A stretch of DNA of 64,000 nt from Halarchaeum grantii (GTDB lineage Archaea > Halobacteriota > Halobacteria > Halobacteriales > Halobacteriaceae), in NCBI RefSeq assembly GCF_014647455.2, contig NZ_BMPF01000005.1, positions 1-64,000 of the forward strand. Reading direction: 5' to 3'. A program made the translations under genes and the position numbers. The stretch's first letter is position 1; every line of letters starts with the position of its first letter. The notes below the pieces were generated by a model. It saw only the letters and a list, made by a program, of their open reading frames with translations. It was not told where the DNA came from and searched no databases. Shown one piece after another: positions 15,927-53,607 of this stretch.

Positions 15927-16139
15927 ATGACGAAGAAGACTATCGGACAAAACACAGGCCATTCAGGTCGCGTGAATCTATCCGGCCCTGAACTCGAGAA
16001 GTTCGAGGCCGACGTCGGCGACGAGATCAAGGTCGATATCGCTGAGTCAAAAGATATCGCCCGCGCGATCATCCAGAATAGTGATCACGACGAGTTCGTC
16101 ATCGTCTCCAAACCAACCACGGAGGACCAATCCGAATGA
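15927..16139 (+). CDS. AbrB/SpoVT-like small protein heading the defence operon
   Basis: A 70-residue protein (MTKKTIGQNTGHSGRVNLSG). The pattern SGRVNLSGPELEKFEADVGD followed by EIKVDI resembles a swapped-hairpin AbrB/MazE DNA-binding domain. ATG 15927 is preferred over the upstream start because the domain begins there. It overlaps the DUF499 gene by four bases (ATGA). Autoregulation of the array is plausible. Confidence 0.55.
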   Translation: MTKKTIGQNTGHSGRVNLSGPELEKFEADVGDEIKVDIAESKDIARAIIQNSDHDEFVIVSKPTTEDQSE

Positions 16140-19100
16140 GCGACACCACGTACCCGAATCTCTTCGACGCCTGCACCCCTCGTGACGACGTCCTCGACGG
16201 AACACTTCAAGAGGACGAGTTCGCAGCGAGCCTCGCAACCGTCGCCCACGCGCGAGACGAAGCTCCGCCCGTCTACCGTGACACCGAGCTCTTCTTCGAT
16301 ATGACGTACCCCACGGACGGGCTCAAGACACTCCTCAGTAACCTCACAGGGCGCTTCCTCGCCAGCGGTGGCTACGACAGCAACGAGTACACGAGTAGCA
16401 TCCTCTGTCTCGACACCCGCTTCGGTGGCGGAAAGACCCACGACCTCATCGCTTCCTACCACCTCGCGACCAACCCAACAGCGGCCAACGACTTGGGCCG
16501 CCATCTCCTCCCGGGTGACGAGGAGTTCGCGACGGCCTATCAGGACGCCGTCGCGGACGGCCTCGACGTCGATACCGCCGTCTTCGTCGGTGGACACGTC
16601 GACGCGCAGAACGCCCGGAGCGACCGGACTGACCCGAACGCACCGAACACCCGGACGATGTGGGGGGAGATCGCCTATCAGCTCTACGGCGTCGAGGGCT
16701 ACGAACTCCTCAAGGAGTACGACCAGGAGCGCAACGCACCCGGGCAGAACACCCTCAAGGACCTCTTCGACCTCGGTGATGGTCCCGCTCTGGTGCTTGT
16801 GGACGAGATCGCGGCGTATCTCGAGAGTGCCTCCGCGGTCGAAGTCGGCAGCGCGACGCTCGCGAGTCAGACGCTGAGCTTCGTGCTCTCCCTTCTCGAG
16901 ACGGCGTCCGAGTCGGACGACGTCACGATCGTCTACTCGATCGCGGACACGGCCTTCGAGGAGGAAGCGGAGGACATCCGCGGCCTCATCGACGAACTGA
17001 ACCAGATCGGTCGTCGGCAGCACAAGACGGTCACACCGACTGACGAGAGCGAGGTGGGACAAGTACTCCAGCATCGCCTCTTCGAGGAGATTAACGGGGA
17101 CGCCGCGGCGTCGGTCGCGCAGTCGTACTTCCAGTTCTACACGAACAGCGAGCGCCAGTTCCCGCAAGAGGCGACCGACGCGAGCTACGTCGACCGCCTC
17201 GAACGCGAGTATCCCTTCCATCCGACCGTCATCGATACGCTCACTGAGAAGATCGACACGATCCCGAAGTTCCAGCGTACGCGTGGTGCACTAAAACTCC
17301 TCGCGCGCGCCGTCTACTATCGGTGGAACAATCAGCCCGAGCACTTCGAACGCCACTGGCTCCGCCTCTACGATCTCACCCCCGCAGACGACGCCCCGAG
17401 TGGCAGCATCAACTCGACGCTCCACGAGTCGCTCTTCGAATTCGTCGACCTCAGTTCGGCCGTCTCCGCAGACATCTACACCGAAGACGGAACCGCTCAC
17501 GCCCAACTCGAAGACCGGAAATGGACGGAGAAAGGCATCCCACCGCTCGGCTCTCACATGACGACGGCCGTCCTCTGGCACAGTCTCGCCTACGGTGAGC
17601 AGGCCACCGGTTTCACGCGTGCGGAGATGAACGAGACGCTCGGCCATCCTGGGATTCGGTTCGACAACTATGACTCCGCGCTGGACGCGCTCGGGGGGTC
17701 AGACATGAGCGTCGCGTGCTACTATCTCTACGACGAGGAGCGCGTGCGCTTCAAATCCGACCCGAACCTCATCCGGATCATCGACCAGCGCGTCGACAAC
17801 ACTCCCGACGCGCAGGCACGCTCCCGGTTCGAGGCCCGTCTCGAGAGCGAGACCGGGACGGGCGCGTTCGAGCCAGTCCTCTACCCCGAGTCCCCCGCAG
17901 ACCTCCCGGACAAGGCTTCGACACCGCAGATCGCCGTGATGCACATGGACACGGCGCCGGTCACCGAGGACCTCCTCACCGACGAGGGCAACGAGGAGTC
18001 GATCCCGGAGAAGGTGCAGTCGCTCTACCAGAAATCCGCCTCGAAGCAGGGCGGTGACGTCCAGAGTCGCGTCTATAAGAACTACGTCCTCTTCCTCGCA
18101 CCCGACGACGAGCGCGTGCGGAGCGCCGTCGACGAGGCCCGCCACCTGGAAGCGATCGAGGCGCTCCTCGACAACTCGCAGCGGACGGCCGACCTCTCCG
18201 ACGAGCAGTTGGAGGATCTCAAGGAACGCCAGCAGGAGAAGTACGGCCTCCTCGGCGAACTCGTCCGTGGCGTGTATCGCCACCTCTACTACGTCGACCG
18301 CGACGGCCTCACGCACATCACGATCAACGCGACCGAAGCCAACGGCGGAACGAGTCTCGTCCACGCTGTCGAGGAGACGCTCGAGGATCGACTGATCAAG
18401 GCGGACGCTGATGCAAAGGGTGTGGCGTTCTTCAAGCAGAAGCTCTGGCAGCGCACCCAGGACTCGATGACGACCCAGCAACTCGTCGAGCAGTTCGCGA
18501 AGAAGCCCGGACTCCCCTACCTCCTGAGCACGAAGCCGCTACGGAAGACCGTCGCGAAGATGGTCGACGAAGCCGGATACACGTACTGGGACAGCGAGGC
18601 CGAACTCGCCTACTGGGACGGTGAGTCCGCGGACGAGCCGGAGAACTGGTCGAAGCGCTCGCCGTTCGCTGAGTCGCCGGACGTCCGCACCACGATCTCC
18701 GATACGGACGTGAAAATCGGTTCGGAGTACGTCGTCTACACGAGCATCGAGGCGCTCCTCGACGTCCACCATGACCCGATCCGACCACCGGAAGCGACGA
18801 AGGTCGAGTGTGCCGAGGATGGCTGCACGACGATGGTCGAGCCGTCCGGTGACGGCCCCGCCTACTGTGCGGAGCACGAGGAGACCACGACGGCGACCTG
18901 CGAGAGTTGTGGCCGGGAGTTCGAGGAGAGCGAGTTGAACGCGGCGGGCCTCTGCCGGGAGTGCGCCCAGCCCTCGGGGTGGGAGTCCTCGACGAGTCAG
19001 ATGGCGGCATCGCGGGCGTTCAACGAGATTCGAACGCACGCGCTCTCGAAGTCGCCGGCGGACGGCACTCCGGGAATCTCCCAGGTGACAGTCGAAGTGA

Positions 19101-19462
19101 TGGGGGAGGACCGCCTCTCGAAGGGGTCGTTCATCGCCCAGCGGGGCGCGTTCACCGACCGCGAGGAGCAGGTGTCCGTCCGGATGAACTACGACGTGAA
19201 GACTTCGACGGGCTCGACGTACAACGCGAGCTATCAGGGGAGTCTCACGGACTTCTCGCGCGTGACGAACCAGCCAGACCCCTTCGGGGAATCAGTCAAC
19301 GTCACGCTGAAGTTCCGGGTCGACTTCGAGGAACCCGAAGCGATAACTGACGCCGAGGACGACGTCCTCGCGGAACTCCAAGCGGGCCTCGGCGAGACCA
19401 ATATCGACGTGAAAGTTCAAGCCAGAGGACCGACCGAAATACCCGCAGAGGTCACTCAATGA
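16136..19462 (+). CDS. DUF499-family AAA-type ATPase
   Basis: A 1108-residue ATPase. The Walker A motif is RFGGGKTH at about residues 95-102 and Walker B is ALVLVDEIAAYL near 220-231, both of the DUF499 type. A long helical middle part follows. Near residues 892-945 two cysteine clusters (CAEDGCTT, then CESCGREF and CRECAQ) suggest zinc binding, and a beta-rich tail ends the protein. DUF499 ATPases occur with DUF1156 methyltransferases and helicases in DISARM-related arrays, where they probably power target recognition or translocation. It overlaps both neighbours by four bases, so it is the second gene of a tight operon. Confidence 0.85.
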   Translation: MSDTTYPNLFDACTPRDDVLDGTLQEDEFAASLATVAHARDEAPPVYRDTELFFDMTYPTDGLKTLLSNLTGRFLASGGYDSNEYTSSILCLDTRFGGGKTHDLIASYHLATNPTAANDLGRHLLPGDEEFATAYQDAVADGLDVDTAVFVGGHVDAQNARSDRTDPNAPNTRTMWGEIAYQLYGVEGYELLKEYDQERNAPGQNTLKDLFDLGDGPALVLVDEIAAYLESASAVEVGSATLASQTLSFVLSLLETASESDDVTIVYSIADTAFEEEAEDIRGLIDELNQIGRRQHKTVTPTDESEVGQVLQHRLFEEINGDAAASVAQSYFQFYTNSERQFPQEATDASYVDRLEREYPFHPTVIDTLTEKIDTIPKFQRTRGALKLLARAVYYRWNNQPEHFERHWLRLYDLTPADDAPSGSINSTLHESLFEFVDLSSAVSADIYTEDGTAHAQLEDRKWTEKGIPPLGSHMTTAVLWHSLAYGEQATGFTRAEMNETLGHPGIRFDNYDSALDALGGSDMSVACYYLYDEERVRFKSDPNLIRIIDQRVDNTPDAQARSRFEARLESETGTGAFEPVLYPESPADLPDKASTPQIAVMHMDTAPVTEDLLTDEGNEESIPEKVQSLYQKSASKQGGDVQSRVYKNYVLFLAPDDERVRSAVDEARHLEAIEALLDNSQRTADLSDEQLEDLKERQQEKYGLLGELVRGVYRHLYYVDRDGLTHITINATEANGGTSLVHAVEETLEDRLIKADADAKGVAFFKQKLWQRTQDSMTTQQLVEQFAKKPGLPYLLSTKPLRKTVAKMVDEAGYTYWDSEAELAYWDGESADEPENWSKRSPFAESPDVRTTISDTDVKIGSEYVVYTSIEALLDVHHDPIRPPEATKVECAEDGCTTMVEPSGDGPAYCAEHEETTTATCESCGREFEESELNAAGLCRECAQPSGWESSTSQMAASRAFNEIRTHALSKSPADGTPGISQVTVEVMGEDRLSKGSFIAQRGAFTDREEQVSVRMNYDVKTSTGSTYNASYQGSLTDFSRVTNQPDPFGESVNVTLKFRVDFEEPEAITDAEDDVLAELQAGLGETNIDVKVQARGPTEIPAEVTQ

Positions 19463-20079
19463 CACCACAACTCGACCCGGCGAGCGCGGGCACGGCGACC
19501 GAGGACGCACCAGCCTCCTCGTTCGGGAGTAGCGTCTACGGCGGTCGTCCGACGTTCGCGCTCGCCCGGCGCGAGAGCCAGAAGGGCGGTGCGGTCACGC
19601 TCTACGAACTCCTCCCGAGTGAGCAGGCGGCCGCGCGTCGCGACCGACTCGAACGCCGCGGGCGCTCACTTCGCGTTGAGGCCTTCGCGGACGTCTTCGA
19701 GGACTCGACGGACGACGTCCTGACGCGGTGGTCGTGGGGGGAGTGGGCGGCCGTGAAGGTCGCCCGCCTCGACGGTGGGCGCTTCCGCGCGCTCGTCCCC
19801 CTCCTCCAGGAGACCCTCGACGGCGCCGGCCTCGACCACACCACCGTCACCGGAAGTGGTACTGGCGACGTCTTCCTCCCCGAGACCGTCGGCGTTCGAC
19901 TCGCGCTCGCGTTTCGGGGCATCAAGCCCATCCAGCGCGTCGACCGCATGCGTGCCTTCTGCCGCGGCCTCGCCCGCATGAGCGACGAAGAATGCTACTA
20001 CTGGCACGCCAAGTGTCGCGCCCCGTCCAGCCCGAACGGCGAAAAAGCACTCCGGACCCTACTCACTGATCATCTATGA
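19459..20079 (+). CDS. Small conserved subunit between DUF499 ATPase and methyltransferase
   Basis: A 206-residue protein. The first 30 residues are low-complexity; the rest has the pattern VYGGRPTFALARRESQKGG, DDVLTRWSWGEWAAVKVARL and the terminal YYWHAKCRA. It occupies the slot where DUF3780-like or related small subunits sit in DUF499/DUF1156 loci; I do not recognise the family with certainty. Four-base overlaps on both sides point to a structural partner of the ATPase-methyltransferase complex. Confidence 0.6.
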   Translation: MTPQLDPASAGTATEDAPASSFGSSVYGGRPTFALARRESQKGGAVTLYELLPSEQAAARRDRLERRGRSLRVEAFADVFEDSTDDVLTRWSWGEWAAVKVARLDGGRFRALVPLLQETLDGAGLDHTTVTGSGTGDVFLPETVGVRLALAFRGIKPIQRVDRMRAFCRGLARMSDEECYYWHAKCRAPSSPNGEKALRTLLTDHL

Positions 20080-22943
20080 CTGACCACGACGACGACCTGA
20101 AACCGCTCGCGATTGAGGGCGAACTACCCCTGAAAGCCGTCGGGATCGAGAACCTAAAAGAGGGGAACCCGAAACATATGCCCCCCCACCGGTATCTACA
20201 TCCGTGGTTCGCTCGACGGCCCACTCCTGCAAGCCGATTAGCGATATTAGCGTCAGTATTACCGAAGGGTTTTGACCATGATGAATTATTACAGCTGATG
20301 CAAATCGGCCCCCGGGAAGGCGTATCCAATATTGCAGAGTACGTGGAGTCAAAAAAGGCTACAGAAGACCAGAGAAGTGGGAATCTGGAGAGCCACTATG
20401 GTTATCCGAGACCATTTACGCGGTCGCCGACTGAGACTCAGAGAGAAGCTTTTCATTCTGAGGTTGAAGAATTGTGGGGGGACTTACCGACAGTTCTGGA
20501 TCCAACCGCAGGTGGCGGTGTAATACCCTATGAGTCCCTTCGATATGGTCTACCCACCAAGGCAAATGAACTGAATCCAATTCCAACTCTTATCTTGAAG
20601 GTTCTACTTGAGTACGCACCATCTGTAGGTGGCCTCAGGCAAGAGCTGGAATATTGGAGCAAAAAAATCGATCAAAGTGCTACCCAATCAATTTCAGAAT
20701 TTTTCCCGTCGAAAAAAGAAGGCAGAGAAATAGACTGTTATATTACTACAAATGTTATCTCATGCCCCACCTGTGGTAGCGATATTCCTTTGGTCGCAAA
20801 GTGGGAAGTGAGAACAAGAAAGGGTGCTGAAACGATCGTCGTGAAGCCAGAGGTACTTGATAACGGATCGGTTAAATATGAGTGCCTAACTGACCCCTCT
20901 GAAGAAGAATTAAATGGATATGACCCCAGTAACGGTCCTGTTTCGAGAGGGGGGGATGCCGAATGCCTTGATTGTGGAGTCGTCACCGAGAGTGAGGAGG
21001 TCAGAAACCGATTCGAGAGTGGAGACTATACGTATGACACATACTGTGTTCGTTATATCGATTCGGATGGGAATTACAAATTCAGGTCGCCTGAGAAGAT
21101 TGATGAAGAGGCTTACGAAGCTACGGTTGAACATGTCGAGTCGGACTACGAGATGTCCACTTTCCTGAATACAGAGATACCAGCGGGTGAGAAAACCACT
21201 GAGCCACGAGAGCATGGTGTTACTCAGTGGAGAGAAATATTCAGCCCTCGGCAATTAGCCTCTCACTATGAATATCTGAGAGCTTATCAAGAGTGCATAG
21301 ATGATATTCGGGAAAAATATGACGAGGAGAAGGCCGAGGCAATTCTGGTGATCCTATCACTCGCCTCCGGAAAGATGATCGATTATAATTCCAGGCTTTC
21401 TCCTTGGAATACGAGCAGAGGCATCCCATCAAATGCCCTCGGCGGGAAACATTTCTCATTACAAAAATCATTTGCTGACGTTAATATGGCAACAGTAGGT
21501 ATCGGTAGTTACCAGTCTTCAGTCAGACGGTTGGTAGACTCATATCAGGACATAGTAAACTATCTCCCTAGCGGTTCACAGACAGGTGAGGTCACCTCAC
21601 GGGATGCTGCGAATCTTCCTTATTCAGATGGGGAAATTCAGTCTGTCGTAATCGACCCACCATATTATAGCAGCATTATGTATGCCGAACTATCCGATAT
21701 ATTTTATGTTTGGCTTAATGAATACGTTGGTGAGCTATTCCCAGAATATTTCGATTCTGACTTAAGCGACAAGGATAATGAGGCAGTTGCCAACCCGAGC
21801 CGTTTTGAGGCTGTTGCAGGTTCTCAATCTTCAAAGAAAGAACTCGCTAGCCAATTCTATGAAGATAAAATGAGTGATATTTTCTCAGAAGCTTATCGGA
21901 CACTAGAGTCTGGGGGGGTTATGACGGTGATGTTCACGCATAAAGAGACTGATGCATGGGACACACTAACGATGTCCCTTATCCGGTCCGGATTCATTAT
22001 CACGTCAACTCATCCGATTACCAGTGAAATGCCAACCAGAATTGATACCCGTGGGGGTGGCTCAGCCGATTCTACTCTCCTCCTCACGGGTCGCAAACCC
22101 CACGAGGAACGCGATCCGGAGAACGCGGTTCCGACCCTCTGGAGCGACGTCGAGGCGGATACCCGGGAGGCCGCGAAGGAGGCCGCCCGCGACCTCCTCG
22201 AATCCGGTGTCTCACTCACGAAGACGGACGTGATCATCTCGGCGTTCGGGCCGACACTCAGAGTCTTCGCGGACGCCTACCCGGTCGTCGACGACGAGGA
22301 CGAGGAGGTGCCGCCGCGGAAGGCCCTCGAAACGGCGCGGGAGGCCGTCACCCAGATTCTCGTCGACGAGTACCTGGAGGGGATGGACGTCGACAATCTC
22401 GACGACGTCACGGAGTGGTACATCCTCTGCTGGCTCGTCCACGAGTCCGAGACGTTCGCCTACGACGACGGCCGCCAGCTCGGTCTCGGGATCGGCGTCG
22501 ACATCGACGACATCAAGCGCTCGACGAAGACGTGGCGCAAGAGCCGCGGCGACATCAGCCTCCGCGGGCACGACGGCCGGGTGCAGAACATCAACGAGAA
22601 ACCCGAGGATCGCTCCAGCCGGCTGCCGGTCGACCCGGACGACCTCTCGTTCCCGCGCGCGCTCGACGCCGTCCACGCCGCGATGCACGTCTACGAGAAG
22701 AAGGGCGAAGCCGCGACCGTCGAGTGGCTCCGCGAGCGAAACTTCGACACCGACGCCCAGTTCAAGGAGACGCTGAAGGCGCTCCTCCAGGTGCTGCCGC
22801 ACAACCACGAGGACTGGGAACTCGCCCGTGACCTCGCGGTCGGTCGGACGAGCGACGTGCTCAACCTCGACTTCAGCCCGAACGTCTTCGCCGAGAGCGG
22901 AGACGAGACGAAACAGACCGAACTGGGCGAACACGAGAACTGA
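20076..22943 (+). CDS. DUF1156 DNA methyltransferase with a mosaic core
   Basis: A 955-residue protein. The N-terminus carries the DUF1156 signature HPWFARRPTPASR (residues about 42-54). Methyltransferase motif I is LDPTAGGG near 141-148 and the catalytic motif IV is DPPY near 527-530, which fits an adenine- or N4-cytosine-type enzyme. A cysteine pair (CPTCGSD) near 230 and another (CLDCG) near 300 may bind zinc. Base composition changes sharply: about 20200-22080 is AT-rich with unlike codon use, while both ends are GC-rich like the neighbours. The catalytic and specificity part seems to have been replaced by recombination. The protein is intact and full length for the family. Confidence 0.85.
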   Translation: MTDHDDDLKPLAIEGELPLKAVGIENLKEGNPKHMPPHRYLHPWFARRPTPASRLAILASVLPKGFDHDELLQLMQIGPREGVSNIAEYVESKKATEDQRSGNLESHYGYPRPFTRSPTETQREAFHSEVEELWGDLPTVLDPTAGGGVIPYESLRYGLPTKANELNPIPTLILKVLLEYAPSVGGLRQELEYWSKKIDQSATQSISEFFPSKKEGREIDCYITTNVISCPTCGSDIPLVAKWEVRTRKGAETIVVKPEVLDNGSVKYECLTDPSEEELNGYDPSNGPVSRGGDAECLDCGVVTESEEVRNRFESGDYTYDTYCVRYIDSDGNYKFRSPEKIDEEAYEATVEHVESDYEMSTFLNTEIPAGEKTTEPREHGVTQWREIFSPRQLASHYEYLRAYQECIDDIREKYDEEKAEAILVILSLASGKMIDYNSRLSPWNTSRGIPSNALGGKHFSLQKSFADVNMATVGIGSYQSSVRRLVDSYQDIVNYLPSGSQTGEVTSRDAANLPYSDGEIQSVVIDPPYYSSIMYAELSDIFYVWLNEYVGELFPEYFDSDLSDKDNEAVANPSRFEAVAGSQSSKKELASQFYEDKMSDIFSEAYRTLESGGVMTVMFTHKETDAWDTLTMSLIRSGFIITSTHPITSEMPTRIDTRGGGSADSTLLLTGRKPHEERDPENAVPTLWSDVEADTREAAKEAARDLLESGVSLTKTDVIISAFGPTLRVFADAYPVVDDEDEEVPPRKALETAREAVTQILVDEYLEGMDVDNLDDVTEWYILCWLVHESETFAYDDGRQLGLGIGVDIDDIKRSTKTWRKSRGDISLRGHDGRVQNINEKPEDRSSRLPVDPDDLSFPRALDAVHAAMHVYEKKGEAATVEWLRERNFDTDAQFKETLKALLQVLPHNHEDWELARDLAVGRTSDVLNLDFSPNVFAESGDETKQTELGEHEN

Positions 22944-22969
22944 CGACGACCACAGATCCCCCATATCAC

Positions 22970-25201
22970 ATGCTCTCCGAGATATTCGACGATTGGAGTC
23001 TCAGCGACGCACACCTCCTGCGTACGGACATACGCGGGACCGAATACGAACCGATCGATGTCGAGGCCGCGGCGTCGAGAGCGAGAGAGGAACTCGACAT
23101 TCGCGTCCCGGAGAAGAACGGGTACGCCGTTCCGCTGTTCGAGAAACACGAGCCGGTACCGACGGACGAGTACGTCATCTACCGACCCGAGAAGGGACAC
23201 ATCGGCTGGTACGACTCGGGGTTCGGTATTGGCGGCGCCGAACGGTTCGCCGACTGCGAGCGGCTACGTGAGAATGAGATCGGACACCGACTGCGGTTCT
23301 GGCTCGACGAACACCGCACCAACGTCGAACTGGACGTCGACGAGGCAGACCTTCCCGACGAACGAGTCCATCCGACCGATCGGCTCAGCGAGGACGCCCG
23401 GCGCGGGTTCTTCGACGATTTGAGGGGCTTCGTCGACTCCGAACGGGAGGCCGAACGCCAAGGGAACTGGGAGCGATACGAGGAGATCGGTCTTGAGGAC
23501 TCCATCCAGCGAAATCAGGTTTCGGGTCCGTTCATAAGCCTCGGATCGACGTCCAGGGAAGGCGAGACCCTGTACAGGTACCAGTTCGCGGACGACGAGG
23601 ACCAAGATGACGAAATCGTCGTCGACCTTCGCGACGACGAGGGAATATTCCCCGGGAACCGATGCATCCTCGACATCGAATCCGACGACCAGCATTTCCC
23701 GATCGAAGCCGAGGTCCGTTCGGTCACCGACCCCCAGATCACGATTCGGCCCGTCTGGGATAGAATTCCCGACCGGAGCGTAGTCGAGAAGATCCTCACC
23801 AGCAACGACGCGGAGGTGTGGCTGCACGAGCTACTGAATCCGGTTCCGTACGATAGGCGTATCGACGCGATCAATCAAGTCGAGCAGAACGACCGAAAGC
23901 GGGACCTGTTGACCGGCGACCGTCCCATCGAATACTCCGTCAACAAGTACGCCCCACCGAACCCCGGACTCGAACTGAACGAGTATCAGCAACTCGCCCT
24001 CGTCTGGGCCGATAGTGCGGAAGACGTCGTGTGCATCCACGGCCCACCGGGGACGGGAAAGACTCGAACCCTCACCGCGTACGTCAGGCACGCCGTTTCG
24101 CGTGGTGAATCCGTCCTCGTGACCGCCCACTCGAATCAAGCCGTCGACAACCTCCTCGTCGGCGACAGTTCACTCGGAACGCCGGAGGATGGGACGCTCC
24201 ACGCGATGGCACAGGACGACGACGTCGACCTGTCCATTGCACGCGTCGGGAATAACTCCCGGAGCCGGGTCGTTCAGAACCACTACACTGGTCGCTCGAC
24301 GAGCGAAGCCGACGTCATCGCCGCGACGACGAGCGGCACCGCGACCTTCGACCAAGACGAGTTCGATGTCGCGGTCGTCGACGAGGCGACACAGGCGAGC
24401 CGGCCGGCGACCGCGATCGTGTTGAACAGCGCCGAAAAGCTCGTCTTAGCCGGCGACCACAAGCAGCTGACACCGTACTGCGCCGACGAGACGAAGAAGG
24501 AAGAGGACATGCACATCTCGTTGTTCGAGTATCTCCTCGAACGGTACGATGGCGCGCTCTCGGTGCTGTTGGAGAAACAATACCGGATGAACGAGGAGAT
24601 CGCCGCGTTCCCCAACGAGGCGTTCTACGACGGGAAACTCAAGACCGCCGACCGGAATCGCGACTGGTCGATATCCGACCTCAAACCGTTCATGGGAGTC
24701 GACATCGACGGACGGGAAAAGACACCGAGCTACGGGAATTCGTACTATAATCCGGACGAGGCTGAGGCGGTCGCAAAGCAGGTACAACTCTTAGCACAGA
24801 GCGGAGTTGCATCGGAGGACATCGGCGTCATTTCCGCGTATAGCGGGCAGGTATCCGAGATACACGATCGGGTGAACCGACTCGACATCGAGGACCCGCG
24901 AGCGGTCAGTGTCGACACCGTCGACTCGTTTCAGGGTGGGGAGCGAGAGGCGATCATCGTCTCGTTCGTCCGGAGCAATGATGACGGCTATAGCGGCTTC
25001 TTGGAGTTCCCCGACGAGGGCCCGCGACGACTGAACGTCGCGCTAACGAGAGCACGGAAGCGTCTCGTATTGGTCGGCAACTGGGAGACGTTAGGCACGT
25101 GTGCGCCCCACCGGTCGAGTGGGGAGAGCTGTGCTGACCTCTATGAGAATCTGGCGGACCACATTCGATCGCGTGAGAGAATGCTCTCGATGAAAGAGTG
25201 A
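22970..25201 (+). CDS. SF1 helicase of the UPF1/DNA2 type
   Basis: A 743-residue helicase. After about 340 N-terminal residues without clear family comes Walker A GPPGTGKT (about 359-366), QAVDNL, the Walker B/motif II VVDEATQASRP (about 469-479), motif III GDHKQL, then VDTVDSFQGGE (motif V) and NVALTRARKRL (motif VI). All core motifs are present, so it should be an active ATP-driven helicase or translocase. It starts 27 bases after the methyltransferase stop and continues the operon. In this array it probably handles DNA or RNA of invaders; the exact substrate is unknown. Confidence 0.85.
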   Translation: MLSEIFDDWSLSDAHLLRTDIRGTEYEPIDVEAAASRAREELDIRVPEKNGYAVPLFEKHEPVPTDEYVIYRPEKGHIGWYDSGFGIGGAERFADCERLRENEIGHRLRFWLDEHRTNVELDVDEADLPDERVHPTDRLSEDARRGFFDDLRGFVDSEREAERQGNWERYEEIGLEDSIQRNQVSGPFISLGSTSREGETLYRYQFADDEDQDDEIVVDLRDDEGIFPGNRCILDIESDDQHFPIEAEVRSVTDPQITIRPVWDRIPDRSVVEKILTSNDAEVWLHELLNPVPYDRRIDAINQVEQNDRKRDLLTGDRPIEYSVNKYAPPNPGLELNEYQQLALVWADSAEDVVCIHGPPGTGKTRTLTAYVRHAVSRGESVLVTAHSNQAVDNLLVGDSSLGTPEDGTLHAMAQDDDVDLSIARVGNNSRSRVVQNHYTGRSTSEADVIAATTSGTATFDQDEFDVAVVDEATQASRPATAIVLNSAEKLVLAGDHKQLTPYCADETKKEEDMHISLFEYLLERYDGALSVLLEKQYRMNEEIAAFPNEAFYDGKLKTADRNRDWSISDLKPFMGVDIDGREKTPSYGNSYYNPDEAEAVAKQVQLLAQSGVASEDIGVISAYSGQVSEIHDRVNRLDIEDPRAVSVDTVDSFQGGEREAIIVSFVRSNDDGYSGFLEFPDEGPRRLNVALTRARKRLVLVGNWETLGTCAPHRSSGESCADLYENLADHIRSRERMLSMKE

Positions 25202-25204
25202 GCG

Positions 25205-25648
25205 TTACTCCTTCACACTGACTCGTCGACCAACGAGATATCCTTGTTCGGCCTGGAGGCGGACACGGATCGTTTCGCCAACCGTACCGCCCTCGATGTG
25301 CACTTGGTGGTTCTTGTAGCGCCCCATCGTATCTCGGGTACCACCGTCAGACTTGATCGTCACTTCAACTACCTCCCCTTCGATCTCGGATTGTGAGACT
25401 CCCGTACCCGAGGAGCGGGATGAGCGCGACGTCGTGTTCGACTGGTCATTGCTGACTTCTGCGTTCGATCGCCGATACGATTCTTCGGATTGGACTTCGC
25501 CGTCGACGATGACGTTACTGTTCTTTCGAGCGCGGTCGTGGAACGTGCCTTTGCTATCACCGACGTCACCTGGCATCGACTCCCCAGTATCGTACGCCGG
25601 GTCGTTGCGGTGACCGTACCCGTAGCGATCCTTGTTATCTCTACTCAT
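25205..25648 (-). CDS. TRAM-domain protein with disordered N-terminus
   Basis: A 147-residue protein. The first 80 residues are hydrophilic and Ser/Asn-rich (SNAEVSNDQSNTTSRSSRSS). The last 60 form a TRAM-like beta-barrel: GEVVEVTIKSDGG, GRYKNHQVHIEGGTVGETIR, then VRLQAEQGYLVGRRV. TRAM domains bind RNA. It converges on the helicase gene with three bases between stops. Whether it belongs to the array or is a passenger is not clear. Confidence 0.65.
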   Translation of the reverse strand: MSRDNKDRYGYGHRNDPAYDTGESMPGDVGDSKGTFHDRARKNSNVIVDGEVQSEESYRRSNAEVSNDQSNTTSRSSRSSGTGVSQSEIEGEVVEVTIKSDGGTRDTMGRYKNHQVHIEGGTVGETIRVRLQAEQGYLVGRRVSVKE

Positions 25649-25942
25649 ACCAGTAATGTGTACCTTCTTTCATATATGTCTGCGGGATATATTCGCTTTA
25701 GATCAGTACTGTATTCAACCGACGACGACAGAACGGTAGAATCAATCCCGATGACATGATTTGGGGCCGTTGACGCCTTCAGGATGCATTTCTCTTTACT
25801 CCGTGGTCTGTTTCACACAACGAGGATCGGGAGTCCGGTCGCTACTTAGCCTTGGCTAGACGAGCGATGTTCTCAACTCTACATTCATTCCGAGCGTCTT
25901 TGCCGACAAGGTCGACGTAACGCGATAGAGCGGTCTCGAAGA

Positions 25943-28138
25943 CTACTGACCGTCTAACTCCCCATCTTCCAGAGGTCTGGCATTATCAGATTCTCCGCCC
26001 GTATCGAGGAATTCTGTCTGTGAATCGGTGGTTGCGATATCGTCCATGAACTCCGGCATTTCGAGTTCCTCATCTCCAAGCTCGTCCGCCTCGATTAGTG
26101 GGGAGTCGAGTACCTGCTCGTATTCGGCGCGTGCATCGCGATAGGTCTCGAAGCGATCCTGGAGCGGCGATAGCACCGCAGCGTCCTCCGTAAACAACCC
26201 CAGTAGCTGTCCCGAAATCGAATACCACATCGCCGCGAAGACCGGATTCTCAGCACGTCCGAGCTCCTCACCAGCAGCTTCGATGAACTGGATGACCCAC
26301 TCCGAATCATCCGCCATGCGACTCGCGAACTCACCGATTCCACCGAGAACCTCCATGAAGAGGTCGTCCTGCATCTGAACGAGCGAGGTGCGAACCATTC
26401 CATCCTCACCGGCGTCATCAATCATCGATCCCACCCGTGACTCAAGAGCAGTCTCGACGTCGACGTTCGACTCAAGCGTGTCGAGGAACGTGCGGCACTC
26501 AGCGAAGAATCCGAGGGCGACTTCGCGGTCGAGACCATAGGTTTCGAGAACATCGAGAATCTCCTTCTGCTGCTCTCGCTTCTCCTCCTCGGTCGTAGCC
26601 TCACGATATATCATGACTCGACAGAGCATTTCGAGCCCATCCTGTACCGCCGCACCATCTGGTTCGTCGAGATAATCTGTGAACTTGTCTTCCTGAATCT
26701 CTTCAAGGACAGACTCATAAATATCGTAAGCAGTTTTCTCAAACTCGACTGGGCCTCGTGAACGGACCTGACCACGGAGAAGATTGATGAGAAGGAGACC
26801 AACGCGATAGTCAGCTTCCTCGCCCTCCTCGACCTCCTGTTCAGCGAACGTCTCGTAGAAACGGTCGATCTCCGGAACCAATAGTCGACTATGGTGGTCG
26901 AGAGGGGAATAGGGAGCAAAGCCCATTACGAAGTTCAGACGCTCTCCCGGACCAAATCCGAGCTGTTCAATCTCCGACGCGAGCTCTGTGGGAGACGGGT
27001 TCTCACCGAGAAGGTTTTCCAGATGAATACCGGCGAACGTACTGTACGCGAATCCTTGAAGAGGCGCCAGCTGGGACGTGTCCTGTTCGGCGAACGCCTC
27101 GTGCGCGTAATACTGGAACGCCGCTCGATGAGTCGTGTCGGTCTCATCTGTTCGCTCGTAGAGGAACTCTCGGAACAGTGGGTGTACGTCATAGACTAAC
27201 AGTCCAGATTCATCCGACCGCCCGAGTTCCCGGATGATGATTTTCTCGCGGAGGCTCTCGAGTGTCTGTCGAACCTCGCTCCTCGAGAAGTCATCAAGGA
27301 TGTTCGTACAGAGTTCTGCATCCAGTTCAATGAGTGGAGACGTATAGCGGAGGAACGTCTCTTCACGCTCACTGAGCGACTTGAGGTACTGTTTCTCGAT
27401 GTAATCATAGACGTCGTCGCGGATCTGGAGTTCAGGCTCTGTATCTGAGGTCTCGATGAGAAGGTCGAGATAATAGGGATGGCCATCGACAGCAGAATGA
27501 ATCTCCTCGATACGGGACTCAGAGATACCCTCGAACGCATCCCGGAGGATTATACCGGATTCCTCTAGGTCGTACATTTCGAGTTCTATCGAACATGCGG
27601 CCCCATCGTATGGGATACGGCCCGTCGTCACGAGGCGAGCTGCGGGACCAAGCGCCTCAGAGAGTTCTCTAAGGAAATCACGAGTCTGCTCCGGCGAGTC
27701 AGGAGCGATCTTGTGCACGTCCTTCAGATAGAGGACGAGTGGATCGCCGATTGAGAGATTCTCCGTGAGCAATTGGAGTTTCTTGAGATGCCGAGAGCGA
27801 TCATCCAACTGGACACCCACGGAGAAGTTCCATATTCCGAGGTCTACACCGGTAACCTGATTTTTGAACGATTGGATGACGCCCGCAGCGTCCCGCGCCC
27901 CAGCCAATAGGTCCTGGGCGATAACGTCCGGCGTGTGCCCCCGGCGAACAGTTACACCACGGACTCGCGATCGATCCTCGAGATCTTCCAGCACGTCATC
28001 AAGGAACTGATTAACGCCGACTCCAGGTTCGCCGTAGAGGTGGACGGTCTGTTCGCCAGCGTGGATCGCCTCATGAACGGTGTCCAGTTCATCAGAGCGA
28101 ACGTTGGATCTCAAGATACATCTGGGAACGAGATACAC
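25943..28138 (-). CDS. STAND-like ATPase with a degenerate P-loop
   Basis: A 731-residue protein built like a STAND or Orc-type ATPase. The N-terminal module begins TVHEAIHAGEQTVHLYGEPG, then a strand-rich core with PLVLYLKDVHKIAP as Walker B-like segment and RLVTTGRIPYD as sensor-like strand. A winged-helix part (LREKIIIRELGRSDE) and a long helical C-terminus follow. The Walker A motif is GEPGVGVN (residues 36-43): the essential lysine is valine and the next residue asparagine, so ATP hydrolysis is probably lost. It is on the minus strand inside an otherwise plus-strand array. A sensor or scaffold role is my guess. Confidence 0.65.
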   Translation of the reverse strand: MYLVPRCILRSNVRSDELDTVHEAIHAGEQTVHLYGEPGVGVNQFLDDVLEDLEDRSRVRGVTVRRGHTPDVIAQDLLAGARDAAGVIQSFKNQVTGVDLGIWNFSVGVQLDDRSRHLKKLQLLTENLSIGDPLVLYLKDVHKIAPDSPEQTRDFLRELSEALGPAARLVTTGRIPYDGAACSIELEMYDLEESGIILRDAFEGISESRIEEIHSAVDGHPYYLDLLIETSDTEPELQIRDDVYDYIEKQYLKSLSEREETFLRYTSPLIELDAELCTNILDDFSRSEVRQTLESLREKIIIRELGRSDESGLLVYDVHPLFREFLYERTDETDTTHRAAFQYYAHEAFAEQDTSQLAPLQGFAYSTFAGIHLENLLGENPSPTELASEIEQLGFGPGERLNFVMGFAPYSPLDHHSRLLVPEIDRFYETFAEQEVEEGEEADYRVGLLLINLLRGQVRSRGPVEFEKTAYDIYESVLEEIQEDKFTDYLDEPDGAAVQDGLEMLCRVMIYREATTEEEKREQQKEILDVLETYGLDREVALGFFAECRTFLDTLESNVDVETALESRVGSMIDDAGEDGMVRTSLVQMQDDLFMEVLGGIGEFASRMADDSEWVIQFIEAAGEELGRAENPVFAAMWYSISGQLLGLFTEDAAVLSPLQDRFETYRDARAEYEQVLDSPLIEADELGDEELEMPEFMDDIATTDSQTEFLDTGGESDNARPLEDGELDGQ

Positions 28139-28461
28139 TTACAAAAACCTAGCCGTGTTGAAACCTTCTCCCGGTCACAGAGCCACTGTGCAAGCTACAG
28201 AGGAGGTTATTGGAAATCCGTAGTTTAAGGAATCTGTTCTCGGACTTGAAGCAGCGCGTACCCGACTCCCAACCACAAGGCTAGCGCGGCTAAGAAGCCA
28301 AGTATGGCACTTACGAGCATACTCACTAGAGCTGGTACTTCAATAATAAATCCTTCTCGCCAAGAGTCTAATTGAGTCCAAGTGTCGGGGACCCAGAAGG
28401 TGGAACCGACGCAGAGGTGGTGGTTAAGTATCAGCCCCGAAAACGATGAGCCATATCACCG
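28139..28461. other. Divergent intergenic region before the PLD-SNF2 helicase
   Basis: This 323-base gap separates two divergent genes and must hold both promoters. It also has a short minus-strand membrane ORF (separate entry). I see no further feature. Confidence 0.4.
28225..28326 (-). CDS. Possible tiny single-pass membrane protein
   Basis: From GTG 28326 a 33-residue frame reads MSMLVSAILGFLAALALWLG and ends LLQVREQIP at stop 28225-28227. It has one clear transmembrane helix. The frame stays open further upstream (VPDTWTQLDSWREGF) to about 28450 without a standard start, so the true start is uncertain. Coding is plausible because of the clean hydrophobic helix but not proven. Confidence 0.3.
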   Translation of the reverse strand: MSMLVSAILGFLAALALWLGVGYALLQVREQIP

Positions 28462-31400
28462 ATGGCTGAGCTCCCGGAGTATGACTGGCAGTCGATTTAT
28501 GAGAGCCAACCCGCGACTACCGGCTCCAATCTCGTCAACGAGTTCTATATCCCCGCACTCAAGCGCAGCGTTCAGTACGACCGTGTCGCCGGTTACTTCT
28601 CGAGTAGTGCGCTCGCCGTTGCGGCGCGTGGGATTCACGCGCTCGTCGAGAACGATGGCGAGATGCGGCTCATCGTCGGTGCAGAGCTCTACGAAACGGA
28701 CCGCCCGGTTCTCGAAGCCCTGACTGACGAACTCGGCGAGGACTTGGACGAACTCGACGACGAGCAGTTGAACGCCCGCCTCCAACTACTCGCGCATCTC
28801 CTTCGCGACGGCCGCCTCACCATCAAAGTCGCCGTTCCCCGCCGAGGCAACTGGGGGATCTTCCATCCGAAAGTCGGGATCTTCCATGATAACGCGGAGA
28901 ACGCGATATCCTTTGAGGGGAGTGTCAACGAGACCGCGGGTGGGTGGGAGCGGAACTACGAACGCTTCAAGGTACATCGAGAGTGGCGGGATGGCCAGCG
29001 CGAGTACGTCGAGGGGGACATCGATACGTTCGAGCGACTCTGGACGGACGATCATCCCTACGTCGAGGTCTACGACCTCCCCAAGGCCATCGAAGAAGAG
29101 ATCATCGACTGGAAAGCACCAGACTCGGATACAGAAGTCGAGACCGCCCTCCAGGTCGCTCGTGGCGAAGCGCCACCCACGGAGAAGGACAAGGCGAACA
29201 TCGTCGCGGACGCCCCACTCAGTCCCGGTGGACTCGCCCTCGCGGAGGAAGGCAGCACCATCACCCCGTGGCCGCACCAGCGCGTCGTCTCCGACACGCT
29301 CGTTAACACGTACCCGAACAGCTTCCTCCTCTGTGACGAAGTCGGCCTCGGGAAAACGATCGAAGCCGGCCTCACGCTCTCCCGACTCGGCCTCACCGAC
29401 GAGCTCGAAACGGGACTCCTCCTCGTCCCCGCGAGCCTCACGATCCAGTGGCAAGAAGAACTCTGGGAGAAATTCAATCTCAACGCCTATCGCTTCGATC
29501 GCGGCAGCGGGAACCAGTACGTCTTCCACGATGCCTTCGGCCGTGAACACACGCCACCGTCCGCTACCGACCTCGATCTCACTGCCGACAAGCGCGAGGA
29601 AGCCTGGTCTGAGAGTCCGATATGGCGATTCCTCCACCAGCAACAATCCACAGCCACAAGCACTGGCCCGACAATCGTGATCATGTCGTGGCATACAGCC
29701 CGCCTCGACGACCGCTGGGACCAGGTCGCCCCCCGCGACAACGGAGTCGTCCGCACTCGGGACGACGTTCCAGCAAGTGTCCGCGGTCGGAACGCTAACG
29801 ATCGAGACGGCGTCTGGGACGCGGTCATCATCGACGAGGCCCACAACGCACGGTCGGGCAGTAAGTTCTACACGCTCCTCGAGCGCCTCCGCGAGCACAC
29901 ACAGGCGTACTACCTCCTGACCGCGACGCCGATGCAGTTGCATGCCGGGGAGCTCTACGACCTGATGACGCTCCTCGACCTCCCTGGTCGATGGGACACC
30001 AAGGAACGATTCGTCGAGTTCTTCGAGACACGGCAGGCTCTCACACAAGCACTCAGACAGCAGCTCGACGGCGAGACCACGACCGAGGACTCCTGGTCGG
30101 CGCAAGCCACACTCGACAAGCACCGCTATCAGGACCGACTGCCGACGGAGCGAGCGCTCTCAGACCAGATATTCGACGCCGTCGGAGCCGAACTCGAGAT
30201 CGGCGACGAGGATCAAGCGCGTGCACGCTCGAAGCAGCGCGTTCTGGAAGCCTGCAACCTCGCCAAAGACTACGGTGCACAGTACGACGGCTACCTCGAT
30301 CGCTTCGACGCCGCGGTCCGCGAATACGACGTCGACCCGTTCGACGCGAACGAGGACGAGAAACTCAAGTACCTGCTCTATCCCGACTGGAAGGCCGAGG
30401 AGGAGTGGCTGACGTACTCGCGGAACGACCGCCTCGGTGCACTCGATGACCTCTCCGAGGCGGGATGGCGCGTCGTCAAAGACGTACTCGCAGAATCGAC
30501 GCCCGTCGATGCCCTCATCCATCGGAATACACGGGATACCCTCCGGAAATACGAGCAGGTCGGGCTGCTCGACACCACCGTCCCCGACAGAAACCCCGAA
30601 CAACGCCAGATCAAACTCACCGAAGAGACACGCGAGGTCTACGACCGTATCGACGACTACACGCGAAAATTCTACAAGCTCGCCCAGCAGTCCGACGAGG
30701 CCGAAACGCGCGCCATCGGCTTCGTGATGACCACCTACCGCCAGCGACTCACCAGTAGCGTCTACGCAATTTCACAGAGCCTGCAGAACCGTCTCGCAAC
30801 CCTCCGCACACAACGAACCGTCCTCAAGGGGAAACAACGCGCCGCCGAGCGAGAACACGCGGACACCCAGCAAGTCATCCTCGAGACGCTCACCGAGTAC
30901 GACCTGGATGATTTCGATGCCCTCGACGAACTCGAGGGGAACCTCGAGGAAGCGGATCTCGCAGACGTCATCCCGAATGTAACCGATCAGGGGATCAACC
31001 TCCTCGAACAGGAAATCGAGGAACTCGAATCCTTCGTCAACGACTTGAAGCGGATCGACAACGACCCGAAGATCGGCCAACTCATCGATGACCTCGATGA
31101 GCTCGACCGCGACGGCCACAATCGCGTCATCATCTTCACGCAGTACACAGACACGATGGACTTCATCCGCGACCGGCTCACGTCCATCCACGGGGCGACA
31201 GTCGCAACGTATTCCGGACGCGGCGGCGAGCTATATGACGCCGAGGACGAGACGTGGACGACGGTTGGTAAAGAACGAGTGAAGCGAGAGTTCTCGACGG
31301 ATGACGGGCGGGTCGACATTCTCGTCTGTACGGACTCCGCGAGCGAGGGATTGAACCTCCAGGAGTGTGGCGCGCTCATCAACTACGACCTGCCGTGGAA

Positions 31401-32397
31401 CCCGATGCGTGTCGAACAGCGAATCGGTCGTATCGACCGTATCGGCCAGCGCTTCGACGAGGTGACCATCCTCAACTATAGCTACAAGGATACCGTCGAG
31501 ACAGACATCTACGACCGACTCGACGACCGGATCGGGCTCTTCGAGGACGTCGTCGGCGACATGCAGCCCATCCTCTCCGGTGTGAGCCAACAGATTCGTG
31601 ACGCGACACTTAACGCCGAGCGCGGGGAGAGCCAGCGTGCTGTCGAGCAGGCAGACCAGCAGTTCAGCGAGCAAATCGAAGACCAAGAACAGGGTGACAG
31701 GGTCGACGTCAGCGAATCACTGGACTCGGTCGATAGTCTCGTCCCCCAGGACGTGATTGATGAAGCGAAACTCGACGCATGGCAGTCCTACTCACACCCA
31801 GATATCGTCGACGTCGGCGATACCGACTACGAATACGCAGCGCCGTACCGAACGCCAAGCCTGCAGGCCGTCCTCGTTGGGAACGAAACGCTCGCCGAGA
31901 GCGGGGTCACGTTCACGTCGGTAACTGACGTCGAAATCGACCTCGATGACGGAGAATCTGCTGAGGAGTTCGCCTTCGCCGAGGATACCTATCGGGTTGC
32001 ACTCGGAGAATCCTCTATCGAGGCCCCGGAGACAGAGGGGGAGCAGACACTCGCGCAGGCGATCGCACCAAGTGAACGGCAGGTGGCAGTGACGTTCTCC
32101 GCAGAGTGTGCTGACGAGTTCCCGTCCGTCCAGTACCTCGCACCCGGGAATCCCCTCCTCGATGATCTCGTCACCACACTCAGACGGATGAGCGAGGAGC
32201 CGACTCGTCTCTCCCAGCAGATCCAGTCTCGGCCAGAGCAGACCGACTCTCCAGTTATCTGTGGATGGGGGCGCGACGGCAATCTTGGCCGCCTCGAGAA
32301 CGATGGAACGGTAGCCGAAGATCAGGCGATGCGTATCCTCCAGTCGTGGTGTGAGACGTTCCTCGAAAACCGCGAACAAGCGGCCCACTCCACATAG
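28462..32397 (+). CDS. PLD-nuclease/SNF2-type helicase fusion of the defence array
   Basis: A 1311-residue protein. The N-terminal about 200 residues are a phospholipase-D-like nuclease domain with HPK at 135-137 and the later GSVNE (about 153-157), one HxK...N half-site. An SNF2/RapA-type helicase follows: EVGLGKT (about 292-298), IIDEAHNAR (about 457-465), LTATPMQ, a long coiled insertion, then DSASEGLNL and RIGRIDRIGQ. DrmD of DISARM type 1 and helicases of DUF499/DUF1156 arrays are of this class. It probably translocates on DNA and may cut it. It is separated from the methyltransferase operon by two minus-strand genes. Confidence 0.85.
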   Translation: MAELPEYDWQSIYESQPATTGSNLVNEFYIPALKRSVQYDRVAGYFSSSALAVAARGIHALVENDGEMRLIVGAELYETDRPVLEALTDELGEDLDELDDEQLNARLQLLAHLLRDGRLTIKVAVPRRGNWGIFHPKVGIFHDNAENAISFEGSVNETAGGWERNYERFKVHREWRDGQREYVEGDIDTFERLWTDDHPYVEVYDLPKAIEEEIIDWKAPDSDTEVETALQVARGEAPPTEKDKANIVADAPLSPGGLALAEEGSTITPWPHQRVVSDTLVNTYPNSFLLCDEVGLGKTIEAGLTLSRLGLTDELETGLLLVPASLTIQWQEELWEKFNLNAYRFDRGSGNQYVFHDAFGREHTPPSATDLDLTADKREEAWSESPIWRFLHQQQSTATSTGPTIVIMSWHTARLDDRWDQVAPRDNGVVRTRDDVPASVRGRNANDRDGVWDAVIIDEAHNARSGSKFYTLLERLREHTQAYYLLTATPMQLHAGELYDLMTLLDLPGRWDTKERFVEFFETRQALTQALRQQLDGETTTEDSWSAQATLDKHRYQDRLPTERALSDQIFDAVGAELEIGDEDQARARSKQRVLEACNLAKDYGAQYDGYLDRFDAAVREYDVDPFDANEDEKLKYLLYPDWKAEEEWLTYSRNDRLGALDDLSEAGWRVVKDVLAESTPVDALIHRNTRDTLRKYEQVGLLDTTVPDRNPEQRQIKLTEETREVYDRIDDYTRKFYKLAQQSDEAETRAIGFVMTTYRQRLTSSVYAISQSLQNRLATLRTQRTVLKGKQRAAEREHADTQQVILETLTEYDLDDFDALDELEGNLEEADLADVIPNVTDQGINLLEQEIEELESFVNDLKRIDNDPKIGQLIDDLDELDRDGHNRVIIFTQYTDTMDFIRDRLTSIHGATVATYSGRGGELYDAEDETWTTVGKERVKREFSTDDGRVDILVCTDSASEGLNLQECGALINYDLPWNPMRVEQRIGRIDRIGQRFDEVTILNYSYKDTVETDIYDRLDDRIGLFEDVVGDMQPILSGVSQQIRDATLNAERGESQRAVEQADQQFSEQIEDQEQGDRVDVSESLDSVDSLVPQDVIDEAKLDAWQSYSHPDIVDVGDTDYEYAAPYRTPSLQAVLVGNETLAESGVTFTSVTDVEIDLDDGESAEEFAFAEDTYRVALGESSIEAPETEGEQTLAQAIAPSERQVAVTFSAECADEFPSVQYLAPGNPLLDDLVTTLRRMSEEPTRLSQQIQSRPEQTDSPVICGWGRDGNLGRLENDGTVAEDQAMRILQSWCETFLENREQAAHST

Positions 32398-34821: not shown

Positions 34822-34905
34822 GGTATGCGTTCTCAGGAACGCTGTGAATCTCGTGAAGCTCGTGAAGAGGAGGTTTATGTGGGTCGAGGAACCAGACCAA
34901 GACCG

Positions 34906-36114
34906 ATGGGGCTCAATTCGTTCACCCGGGACAACTCAATATTCGAGAACGAGACCGTTCTCAGAGACGAGTACACCCCAGACGACCTCCTCGAACGTGA
35001 CGACGAGCTCGCCGCCTACCAGAACGCACTCCGGCCCGTGATCAACGGCGCGCCGCCGAAGAACATCTTCCTCTACGGGCAGACCGGTGTTGGGAAGACC
35101 ATCTCGACCGACCTCGTCCTCAGCCAACTCCAGAGTGACGCGGAACAGTATGACGACCTCGGCGTCGAAACCATCTATCTCAACTGTAAGGATCTCTCGA
35201 CCTCCTACCAGGTCGCCGCGAATCTCGTCAACGTCTTCCGTGCGGACGACCCCGACCAGTCGACCATCTCGACGACCGGCTATCCGCAGTCGATGGTCTA
35301 CGATATGCTCTGGGAGCACCTCGAAGACCTCGATGGCACACACGCCCTGATCGTTCTCGACGAAGTCGACTCGATCGGCACTGACGACGGCATCCTGTAT
35401 CAGTTGCCGCGTGCCTCGACAGCCGGTCACGTCACCGACACCTACGTTGGCGTGATCGGGATCTGTAACAACTTCACCTTCCGCGACAATCTCAGCGCCC
35501 GCGTGAAAGATACGCTCTGTGAGGAGGAACTCCACTTCAAGCCGTATGACGCGAACCAGCTGGGCACGATCCTCCGCCATCGCGCGGAGAAAGCCTTCTT
35601 CGACGATGTCCTCGAGAGCGACGTCATCCCCGCCGCCGCAGCCTACGGTGCGCAAGAGTCTGGAAGTGCCCGTCAAGCACTCAAACTCCTCTACAAGGCT
35701 GGCGATCTCGCCCGCGAAGGTGAGCGGAGTACTGTCACTGGTGAGGATGTCGAGAACGCGCGCGAACTCATCGCGAAAGACCGCATCGGCGACGAAGTCA
35801 ACTCCCTCCCCACACAGGGCAAGCTCGCACTTACAGCCGTGTACACACTCGAACGCCGCGGTGAAACACCATCGAAGCGAATCCAGATCCACGAGGAATA
35901 CGAACGGCACGCGAGCGCCATCGACGCAGACGTCCTCTCCATCCGGTCGATTCACGACCGACTCAGCGACCTGCGCTTAAAGGGTATTCTCGACGGTGAG
36001 GAGCGAAACGACGGCCGTGGTGGTGGCTCGTACTACCAGTACCAGCTCGGCGATCGCGAGGACATCATCGGAGAGATCCTCCAAGAGGACGAGCGGCTCT
36101 CCGCTCTCTTTTAG
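34906..36114 (+). CDS. orc1: Orc1/Cdc6 replication initiator
   Basis: A 402-residue AAA-type initiator starting MGLNSFTRDNSIFENE. Walker A is GQTGVGKT (about 59-66) and Walker B LIVLDEVDSIG (about 146-156). The sensor and lid helices (GSARQALKLLYKAGD) and a winged helix (RSIHDRLSDLRLKGIL) follow, all as expected. It binds origin repeats and loads MCM helicase. I prefer ATG 34906 over the TTG at 34789, because conserved Orc sequence starts there and the extra part overlaps an iteron. Iterons lie directly upstream. Confidence 0.9.
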   Translation: MGLNSFTRDNSIFENETVLRDEYTPDDLLERDDELAAYQNALRPVINGAPPKNIFLYGQTGVGKTISTDLVLSQLQSDAEQYDDLGVETIYLNCKDLSTSYQVAANLVNVFRADDPDQSTISTTGYPQSMVYDMLWEHLEDLDGTHALIVLDEVDSIGTDDGILYQLPRASTAGHVTDTYVGVIGICNNFTFRDNLSARVKDTLCEEELHFKPYDANQLGTILRHRAEKAFFDDVLESDVIPAAAAYGAQESGSARQALKLLYKAGDLAREGERSTVTGEDVENARELIAKDRIGDEVNSLPTQGKLALTAVYTLERRGETPSKRIQIHEEYERHASAIDADVLSIRSIHDRLSDLRLKGILDGEERNDGRGGGSYYQYQLGDREDIIGEILQEDERLSALF

Positions 36115-53436: not shown

Positions 53437-53607
53437 ACAGAGCGGGCGAAGTGATGCACGGGAAACAGGGTGGTCTATTAAATTAATTGGATATGATGAT
53501 TAGGTGAAGATGGGGAGATATTTGAGGATTAGGTAGGCCAAAGCAAACTTCAAGAAACAGTTTCCTCCGACCGCTTCCCAAGCGAGTAGTCTATCTCCTA
53601 ATCGTCG

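What the first reader, a model, noticed from the sequence alone, without database searches (positions are those of the whole stretch)
20200..22080. Methyltransferase with a swapped AT-rich core
Both ends of the DUF1156 gene are GC-rich like its neighbours, while the central 1.9 kb, with motif I, motif IV and the likely specificity part, is AT-rich with different codon choice. The reading frame is intact. This suggests that recombination replaces the specificity core between alleles, a way to change the methylation target and stay ahead of viruses.
Basis: seen in the sequence. Interest (0 to 1): 0.75.

Follow-up and report, generated by a model that had tools for sequence, protein, structure and literature searches.

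The report
Swappable core in haloarchaeal defence methyltransferase
In a salt-loving archaeon's anti-virus gene cluster, the middle two-thirds of the DNA-marking enzyme has been replaced by recombination while both ends stayed put; relatives do this repeatedly, and in the one close pair with published methylation maps the enzyme assigned to the swapped gene reads a different DNA word.

Summary
The DUF1156 methyltransferase gene (20076-22943) has third-position GC of 0.74 / 0.43 / 0.92, with breaks at codons 39 and 680 (log-likelihood gain 112; best of 200 shuffles 10; next-best long gene in the window 17.5).

Composition alone does not show a recent import, because the core is AT-rich in nearly all 36 relatives compared. 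The swap itself is shown by homology. Against the collinear locus of Halarchaeum nitratireducens, the flanks are about 79-86% identical in DNA and codons ~53-668 fall to 56%. Seven relatives place the right breakpoint at codons 664-676. Fourfold-site identity falls from 0.60 to 0.23. Core and C-terminal trees reject each other (AU p down to 1e-49). In the operon only this block fails to follow the neighbouring genes.

The exchanged unit is the whole methyltransferase domain with its recognition insert; some other pairs exchange mainly the insert.

Published methylomes bear on function. Haloarcula marismortui and Natrinema versiforme carry operons about 97% identical except codons 268-877 of this gene (75%). 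The motifs putatively assigned to it are TCGACGG (m4C) and TCCTCGG.

New variant of a known kind: specificity-module exchange, as in Type III modA, here in an archaeal BREX-related/Hma system. Donor and virus link are not shown.

The parts
16136..19462 (+). DUF499 AAA+ ATPase (HmaC-like)
   Evidence: PADLOC HmaC 294 bits, Pfam DUF499 104 bits
19459..20079 (+). DUF7680 protein, overlapping neighbours by 4 bases
   Evidence: Pfam DUF7680 135 bits
20076..22943 (+). DUF1156 DNA methyltransferase gene (HmaB-like)
   Evidence: PADLOC HmaB 190 bits, Pfam DUF1156 30.6 bits against a cut-off of 24
20076..20192 (+). Retained N-terminal part (about codons 1-39; left breakpoint uncertain, codons 28-68)
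   Evidence: GC3 0.74; identity breakpoints
20193..22080 (+). Exchanged core: whole methyltransferase domain with recognition insert (about codons 40-668)
   Evidence: GC3 0.43; 56-58% DNA identity to seven relatives that are 78-88% identical on both sides; fourfold-site identity 0.19-0.26 in the core
20499..20519 (+). Motif I, DPTAGGG (codons 142-148)
   Evidence: sequence; D142, G146, G148 invariant in 41 homologues
20616..21575 (+). Insert between strand 2 and strand 3 of the methyltransferase fold, likely recognition domain (codons ~181-500), most divergent part
   Evidence: model strands at 161-164 and 505-507; median distance 0.51-0.55; insert described for this enzyme class in PMC12839542
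20763..20975 (+). Four-cysteine motif (C230, C233, C297, C300)
   Evidence: invariant in 41 homologues
21654..21668 (+). Motif IV, DPPYY (codons 527-531)
   Evidence: D527, P528, P529, Y530 invariant in 41 homologues
22143..22943 (+). Retained C-terminal part (codons 690-955)
   Evidence: GC3 0.92; 88-93% amino-acid identity to seven relatives with core only 55-60%
22970..25201 (+). UPF1-like helicase (AAA_11/AAA_12), occupant of a variable slot; shared at 89% with H. nitratireducens
   Evidence: Pfam
25736..28435 (.). Second stretch that differs from H. nitratireducens, with minus-strand ORF 25943-28138
   Evidence: identity falls to about 0.5 with many gaps
28462..32397 (+). PLD-SNF2 helicase (HmaA-like effector)
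   Evidence: PADLOC PLD_Helicase 242 bits, HmaA 205 bits; Pfam Helicase_C, SNF2, PLDc_2

Best explanation
The gene is the self-marking DNA methyltransferase of a BREX-related (Hma-type) defence operon. Its methyltransferase domain, with the DNA-recognition insert inside it, is an exchangeable module. Homologous recombination, using the conserved upstream genes with the DUF1156 start as one arm and the conserved C-terminal part as the other, replaces the centre with a divergent allele while the ATPase, DUF7680, C-terminal domains and helicase stay. The likely effect is a new methylation and target sequence for the same machinery. Shown here: the exchange, its borders, its recurrence across haloarchaea and its restriction to this gene. 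Supported by published methylomes but not proven: the change of sequence specificity. Inferred: homologous recombination as the mechanism, and escape from viruses or from pre-methylated invading DNA as the advantage.
For: Collinear orthologous region in H. nitratireducens (rpoB 91% identical) with only the core and one further slot replaced. Against seven relatives the window's right break falls at codons 664-676 and the left at 28-68, flanks 78-88%, core 56-58% DNA. Fourfold sites at conserved codons agree in 0.23 of core against 0.60 of C-terminal cases, so protein-level selection alone cannot explain it. Eight genes that form one starred clade by C-terminus fall into five lineages by core; AU p 2e-49, reverse test 1e-49. 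Distances of codons 1-720 do not follow the ATPase (rank correlation 0.03-0.26) while most of the ATPase, DUF7680 and helicase windows do (mostly 0.55-0.87). Recent cases: L025/L029, flanks about 98%, codons ~176-530 74%; H. marismortui/N. versiforme, operon about 97%, codons 268-877 75%, assigned motifs TCGACGG and TCCTCGG. The exchanged unit spans the methyltransferase strands 140-673 of the model.
Against: No donor: the closest core found is 63-64% identical. Motif-to-gene assignments in the methylome papers are putative, and the N. versiforme gene was matched through a locus-tag offset that I inferred. No methylome exists for the window's own species as far as I found. The left breakpoint is poorly resolved because the N-terminal stretch is short and conserved. 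AT-richness is family-wide, so it does not date the event. The structure model is of medium quality (mean pLDDT 60, C-terminal part poor).
Confidence: 0.85

Rival explanations
1. No recombination: the recognition core simply evolves very fast under positive selection, and the AT-rich composition is a codon-usage quirk.
For: Core divergence is high in most pairs and concentrated in the insert; low core GC3 is common to the family.
Against: Synonymous fourfold sites at conserved codons are also saturated in the core but not in the C-terminal part. Breaks are sharp and at similar places in many pairs. Cores of the same class occur on different flanks, and each tree rejects the other's clades. Some pairs have nearly identical flanks with a different centre.
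Confidence: 0.04
2. The core is the resident part and the rest of the operon, including the C-terminus, has been homogenised by recombination or by operon-wide transfer with GC-biased gene conversion, leaving the unpairable core AT-rich.
For: Operons move between families with 98-99% identity (L025/L029). GC3 contrast is strongest in the clade whose flanks are most alike, and cores of all classes stay AT-rich.
Against: ATPase, DUF7680, C-terminus and PLD helicase agree with one another and only the core differs. In the Halarchaeum pair the wider region is collinear and shared, so the simplest history is one replacement inside the gene.
Confidence: 0.1
3. The exchange is real but neutral for specificity: cores are equivalent catalytic modules, maintained by drift and frequent horizontal transfer.
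For: Specificity has not been measured for the window's enzyme.
Against: The most divergent part is the insert that the literature describes as the recognition domain, and the one close pair with published methylomes has different assigned motifs.
Confidence: 0.1

Closest known systems
DUF499-centred BREX-related (BR) systems, named Hma (helicase, methylase, ATPase) in PADLOC (PMC12839542, PMC8565338)
   Same: Gene set, DUF1156 methyltransferase with an insert and four cysteines, DUF499 ATPase, PLD-SNF2 helicase.
   Different: DUF7680 stands in the second position; a find for 'recombination' in the BR paper gave no hits. The published class is called an N6-adenine methyltransferase, whereas an assigned relative is reported as m4C.
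Type III R-M modA alleles of Neisseria and Haemophilus (PMC3311624)
   Same: Conserved 5' and 3' ends with a central recognition domain replaced en bloc by horizontal transfer.
   Different: In modA the AdoMet and DPPY motifs are in the conserved parts; in the window the whole catalytic domain goes with the insert. A different system and domain of life; phase variation by repeats was not looked for here.
Domain movement of recognition domains in Helicobacter pylori Type I and Type III systems (PMC3983042)
   Same: Recognition sequences fall into homology groups that move between genes at conserved methyltransferase motifs and change the methylome.
   Different: There the recognition domain moves, also within a gene or between non-orthologous genes; here orthologous genes exchange a larger unit.

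Membership tests
BR / Hma defence system | DUF499 AAA+ ATPase | tested here: met
   Pfam DUF499 104 bits, PADLOC HmaC
BR / Hma defence system | DUF1156 methyltransferase with motifs I and IV | tested here: met
   Pfam DUF1156 30.6 bits, HmaB 190 bits, invariant motif residues
BR / Hma defence system | Helicase fused to a nuclease domain | tested here: met
   HmaA/PLD_Helicase, SNF2 and Helicase_C; the PLDc_2 match is below its cut-off
BR / Hma defence system | Recognition insert between strands 2 and 3 with four cysteines | tested here: met
   model and invariant C230, C233, C297, C300
[quoted passage not shown]
   helices predicted but pLDDT mostly below 50 after residue 766
BR Type-2 subtype | Standalone DUF3780 | tested here: not met
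   the small gene matches only DUF7680 in Pfam
BR / Hma defence system | Antiviral activity | not testable with these tools
   needs a viral challenge assay
Type III modA-like allele exchange (works like) | Conserved ends, replaced centre, breakpoints | tested here: met
Type III modA-like allele exchange (works like) | Recognition sequence changes with the centre | tested here: inconclusive
   published putative motifs differ for one close pair
Type III modA (member) | Partner Res subunit and Mod protein family | tested here: not met
   best matches are HmaB/DUF1156; the partners are a DUF499 ATPase and a PLD helicase
Type III modA (member) | Simple repeats for phase variation | not tested
   -

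The most novel reading that the evidence does not exclude
In haloarchaeal BREX-related systems the complete catalytic and recognition domain of the methyltransferase is a horizontally circulating cassette that re-targets an otherwise fixed defence machine to new seven-base, probably m4C, motifs, so the ATPase and effector must read specificity from the methyltransferase alone.
Probability: 0.55. Interest if true: 0.75.

Novelty: new variant of a known kind. Interest (0 to 1): 0.62.

Why it matters
It points to the part of a poorly understood, widespread defence class that sets the target sequence, and shows that archaea exchange it as a unit, as bacteria do with Type I and Type III specificity modules. 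Natural pairs with nearly identical operons and different centres (H. marismortui/N. versiforme; L025/L029) make the specificity question directly testable. Published methylomes also suggest that this enzyme class makes m4C at seven-base asymmetric sites, against the N6-adenine label it usually gets.

Tried and rejected
Viral origin of the core: IMG/VR gave one relative at 24% identity, so no support. Donor search in about 390 Halobacteriales genomes with the core alone: best 63%. Silent spare cores in the same genome: only one DUF1156 match and one core match, no sign of a cassette store. AT-richness as proof of recent import: rejected, family-wide. Sequence search of the PDB with the family profile: no match; the fold search gave only generic SAM methyltransferases. 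An attempt to count core-class changes on the flank tree printed no counts, so no number of events is claimed.

Full report
What is there. The window lies on a 174-kb contig of a 3.0-Mb haloarchaeal genome; a same-genus genome in the collection corresponds to Halarchaeum nitratireducens, whose 108,817-base contig carries the closest syntenic locus. The gene 20076-22943 encodes a 955-residue DUF1156 DNA methyltransferase. It sits between a DUF499 ATPase, a DUF7680 protein, a UPF1-like helicase and a PLD-SNF2 helicase. PADLOC profiles name these HmaC, HmaB and HmaA; a 2026 survey calls the same class DUF499-centred BREX-related systems (PMC12839542).

Composition. GC3 is 0.74, 0.43 and 0.92 in codons 1-39, 40-680 and 681-955. 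The two-break model gains 112 log units, against at most 10 in shuffles and at most 17.5 in 15 other long genes of the window. Among 36 complete operons the core has lower GC3 than the ATPase in 35 and lower than the gene's own C-terminus in 32, with means 0.46, 0.70 and 0.64. The contrast is thus real, very strong here, and a property of the module in general.

Exchange. Against H. nitratireducens the operon is mostly 80-90% identical in DNA on both sides, and 50-60% over most of the core, rising to about 70% towards its right edge. The surrounding region is collinear and rpoB is 91% identical. With seven different relatives the window's right breakpoint is at codons 664-676 and the left at 28-68. 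These relatives share 88-93% of C-terminal residues with the window but only 55-60% of core residues. In the four such pairs tested, fourfold-degenerate sites agree in 0.19-0.26 of core cases and 0.60-0.67 of C-terminal cases, so the core is a distant allele and not a fast-evolving copy.

Trees. By C-terminus, the window and seven relatives form one starred clade with short branches. By core they fall into five separate lineages; H. nitratireducens goes with a different clade and the window goes with Natrinema zhouii, L007, L017, L005 and L011/L018. Holding the eight together on the core data costs 441 log units (AU p 2e-49); holding the window's core clade together on C-terminal data costs 239 (p 1e-49). 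These were quick trees with the LG+G4 model, and the tested groups were taken from the other tree. Sliding along the operon, distances follow the ATPase in most ATPase, DUF7680 and PLD-helicase windows (rank correlation mostly 0.55-0.87), and do not in methyltransferase codons 1-720 (0.03-0.26); they partly recover in the C-terminal windows.

Unit of exchange. The AlphaFold2 model (mean pLDDT 60, methyltransferase part better) places the fold's strands from 140 to 673, with the insert at about 181-500. In the window the whole domain is foreign. In L025/L029 the flanks are about 98% identical and mainly the insert, codons ~176-530, differs (74%). So both a large and a small unit are exchanged. 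L014, L015 and L032 show nearly identical cores on less similar flanks, and two copies in one Salinirubellus genome have identical cores.

Specificity. H. marismortui pNG600 carries a family member that is the only large DNA methyltransferase annotated on that plasmid. Its methylome paper assigns the m4C motif TCGACGG to a type II-alpha enzyme on the 155-kb plasmid (PMC6606915). N. versiforme pNVE500 carries another, FEJ81_RS19870. TCCTCGG is assigned to FEJ81_19855 (PMC6696651), and the GCAAT enzyme FEJ81_20490 corresponds to RS20505, an N-6 DNA methylase, which gives an offset of 15 and so points to this gene; that mapping is my inference. The two operons are about 97% identical in the ATPase and helicase, and 75% in codons 268-877 of the methyltransferase. 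H. salifodinae has an unassigned seven-base m4C motif ACGACGC and a family member on pHTS96.

What is known. Replacement of a central recognition domain between conserved ends is established for Type III modA (PMC3311624) and for H. pylori recognition domains (PMC3983042). I found no description of it for DUF1156 methyltransferases: three papers in the library hold 'DUF1156' with 'methyltransferase', and the one of these that treats the system does not mention recombination in its main text. Hence new variant of a known kind.

Limits. One genome per species was sampled; no donor was found; the mechanism (homologous recombination through conserved flanks) and the benefit (virus escape) are inferred.

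Noticed in passing
22944-28461 and loci L053-L073: Between the methyltransferase and the PLD helicase lies a variable slot: UPF1-like helicase (window, L052, L053, L057, L064), a ~320-aa protein without Pfam match (L059, L063, L068, L072, L056), an HSDR_N/MCM_OB protein (L061, L073), a PHP/ATPase-like ORF (L066, by eye); most members outside this clade have no gene there.
   Followed up: partly
L098, L099, L104: Published methylomes suggest this DPPY enzyme class makes m4C at seven-base asymmetric sites, whereas the class is usually labelled N6-adenine.
   Followed up: partly
L060 (H. salinarum 91-R6 pHSAL2): The copy is broken: the DUF1156 start and the rest are in separate ORFs with a CopG-family gene annotated between them.
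   Followed up: no
L014 and L032 (Salinirubellus salinus plasmid): Two operons on one plasmid with identical cores and different C-terminal ends.
   Followed up: no
18656-19015: ATPase codons 841-960 are unusually divergent between relatives but still follow the operon's history.
   Followed up: no
53500-64000: The last 10 kb of the window are AT-rich throughout (GC 0.41-0.50).
   Followed up: no
34825-36111: Second-strongest internal GC3 shift in the window, at codon 27 of a 429-aa ORF; may be a wrong start codon.
   Followed up: no
25205-25648: Minus-strand 147-aa ORF conserved (82-87% DNA) with H. nitratireducens, no Pfam or PADLOC match; the end looks TRAM-like by eye.
   Followed up: no
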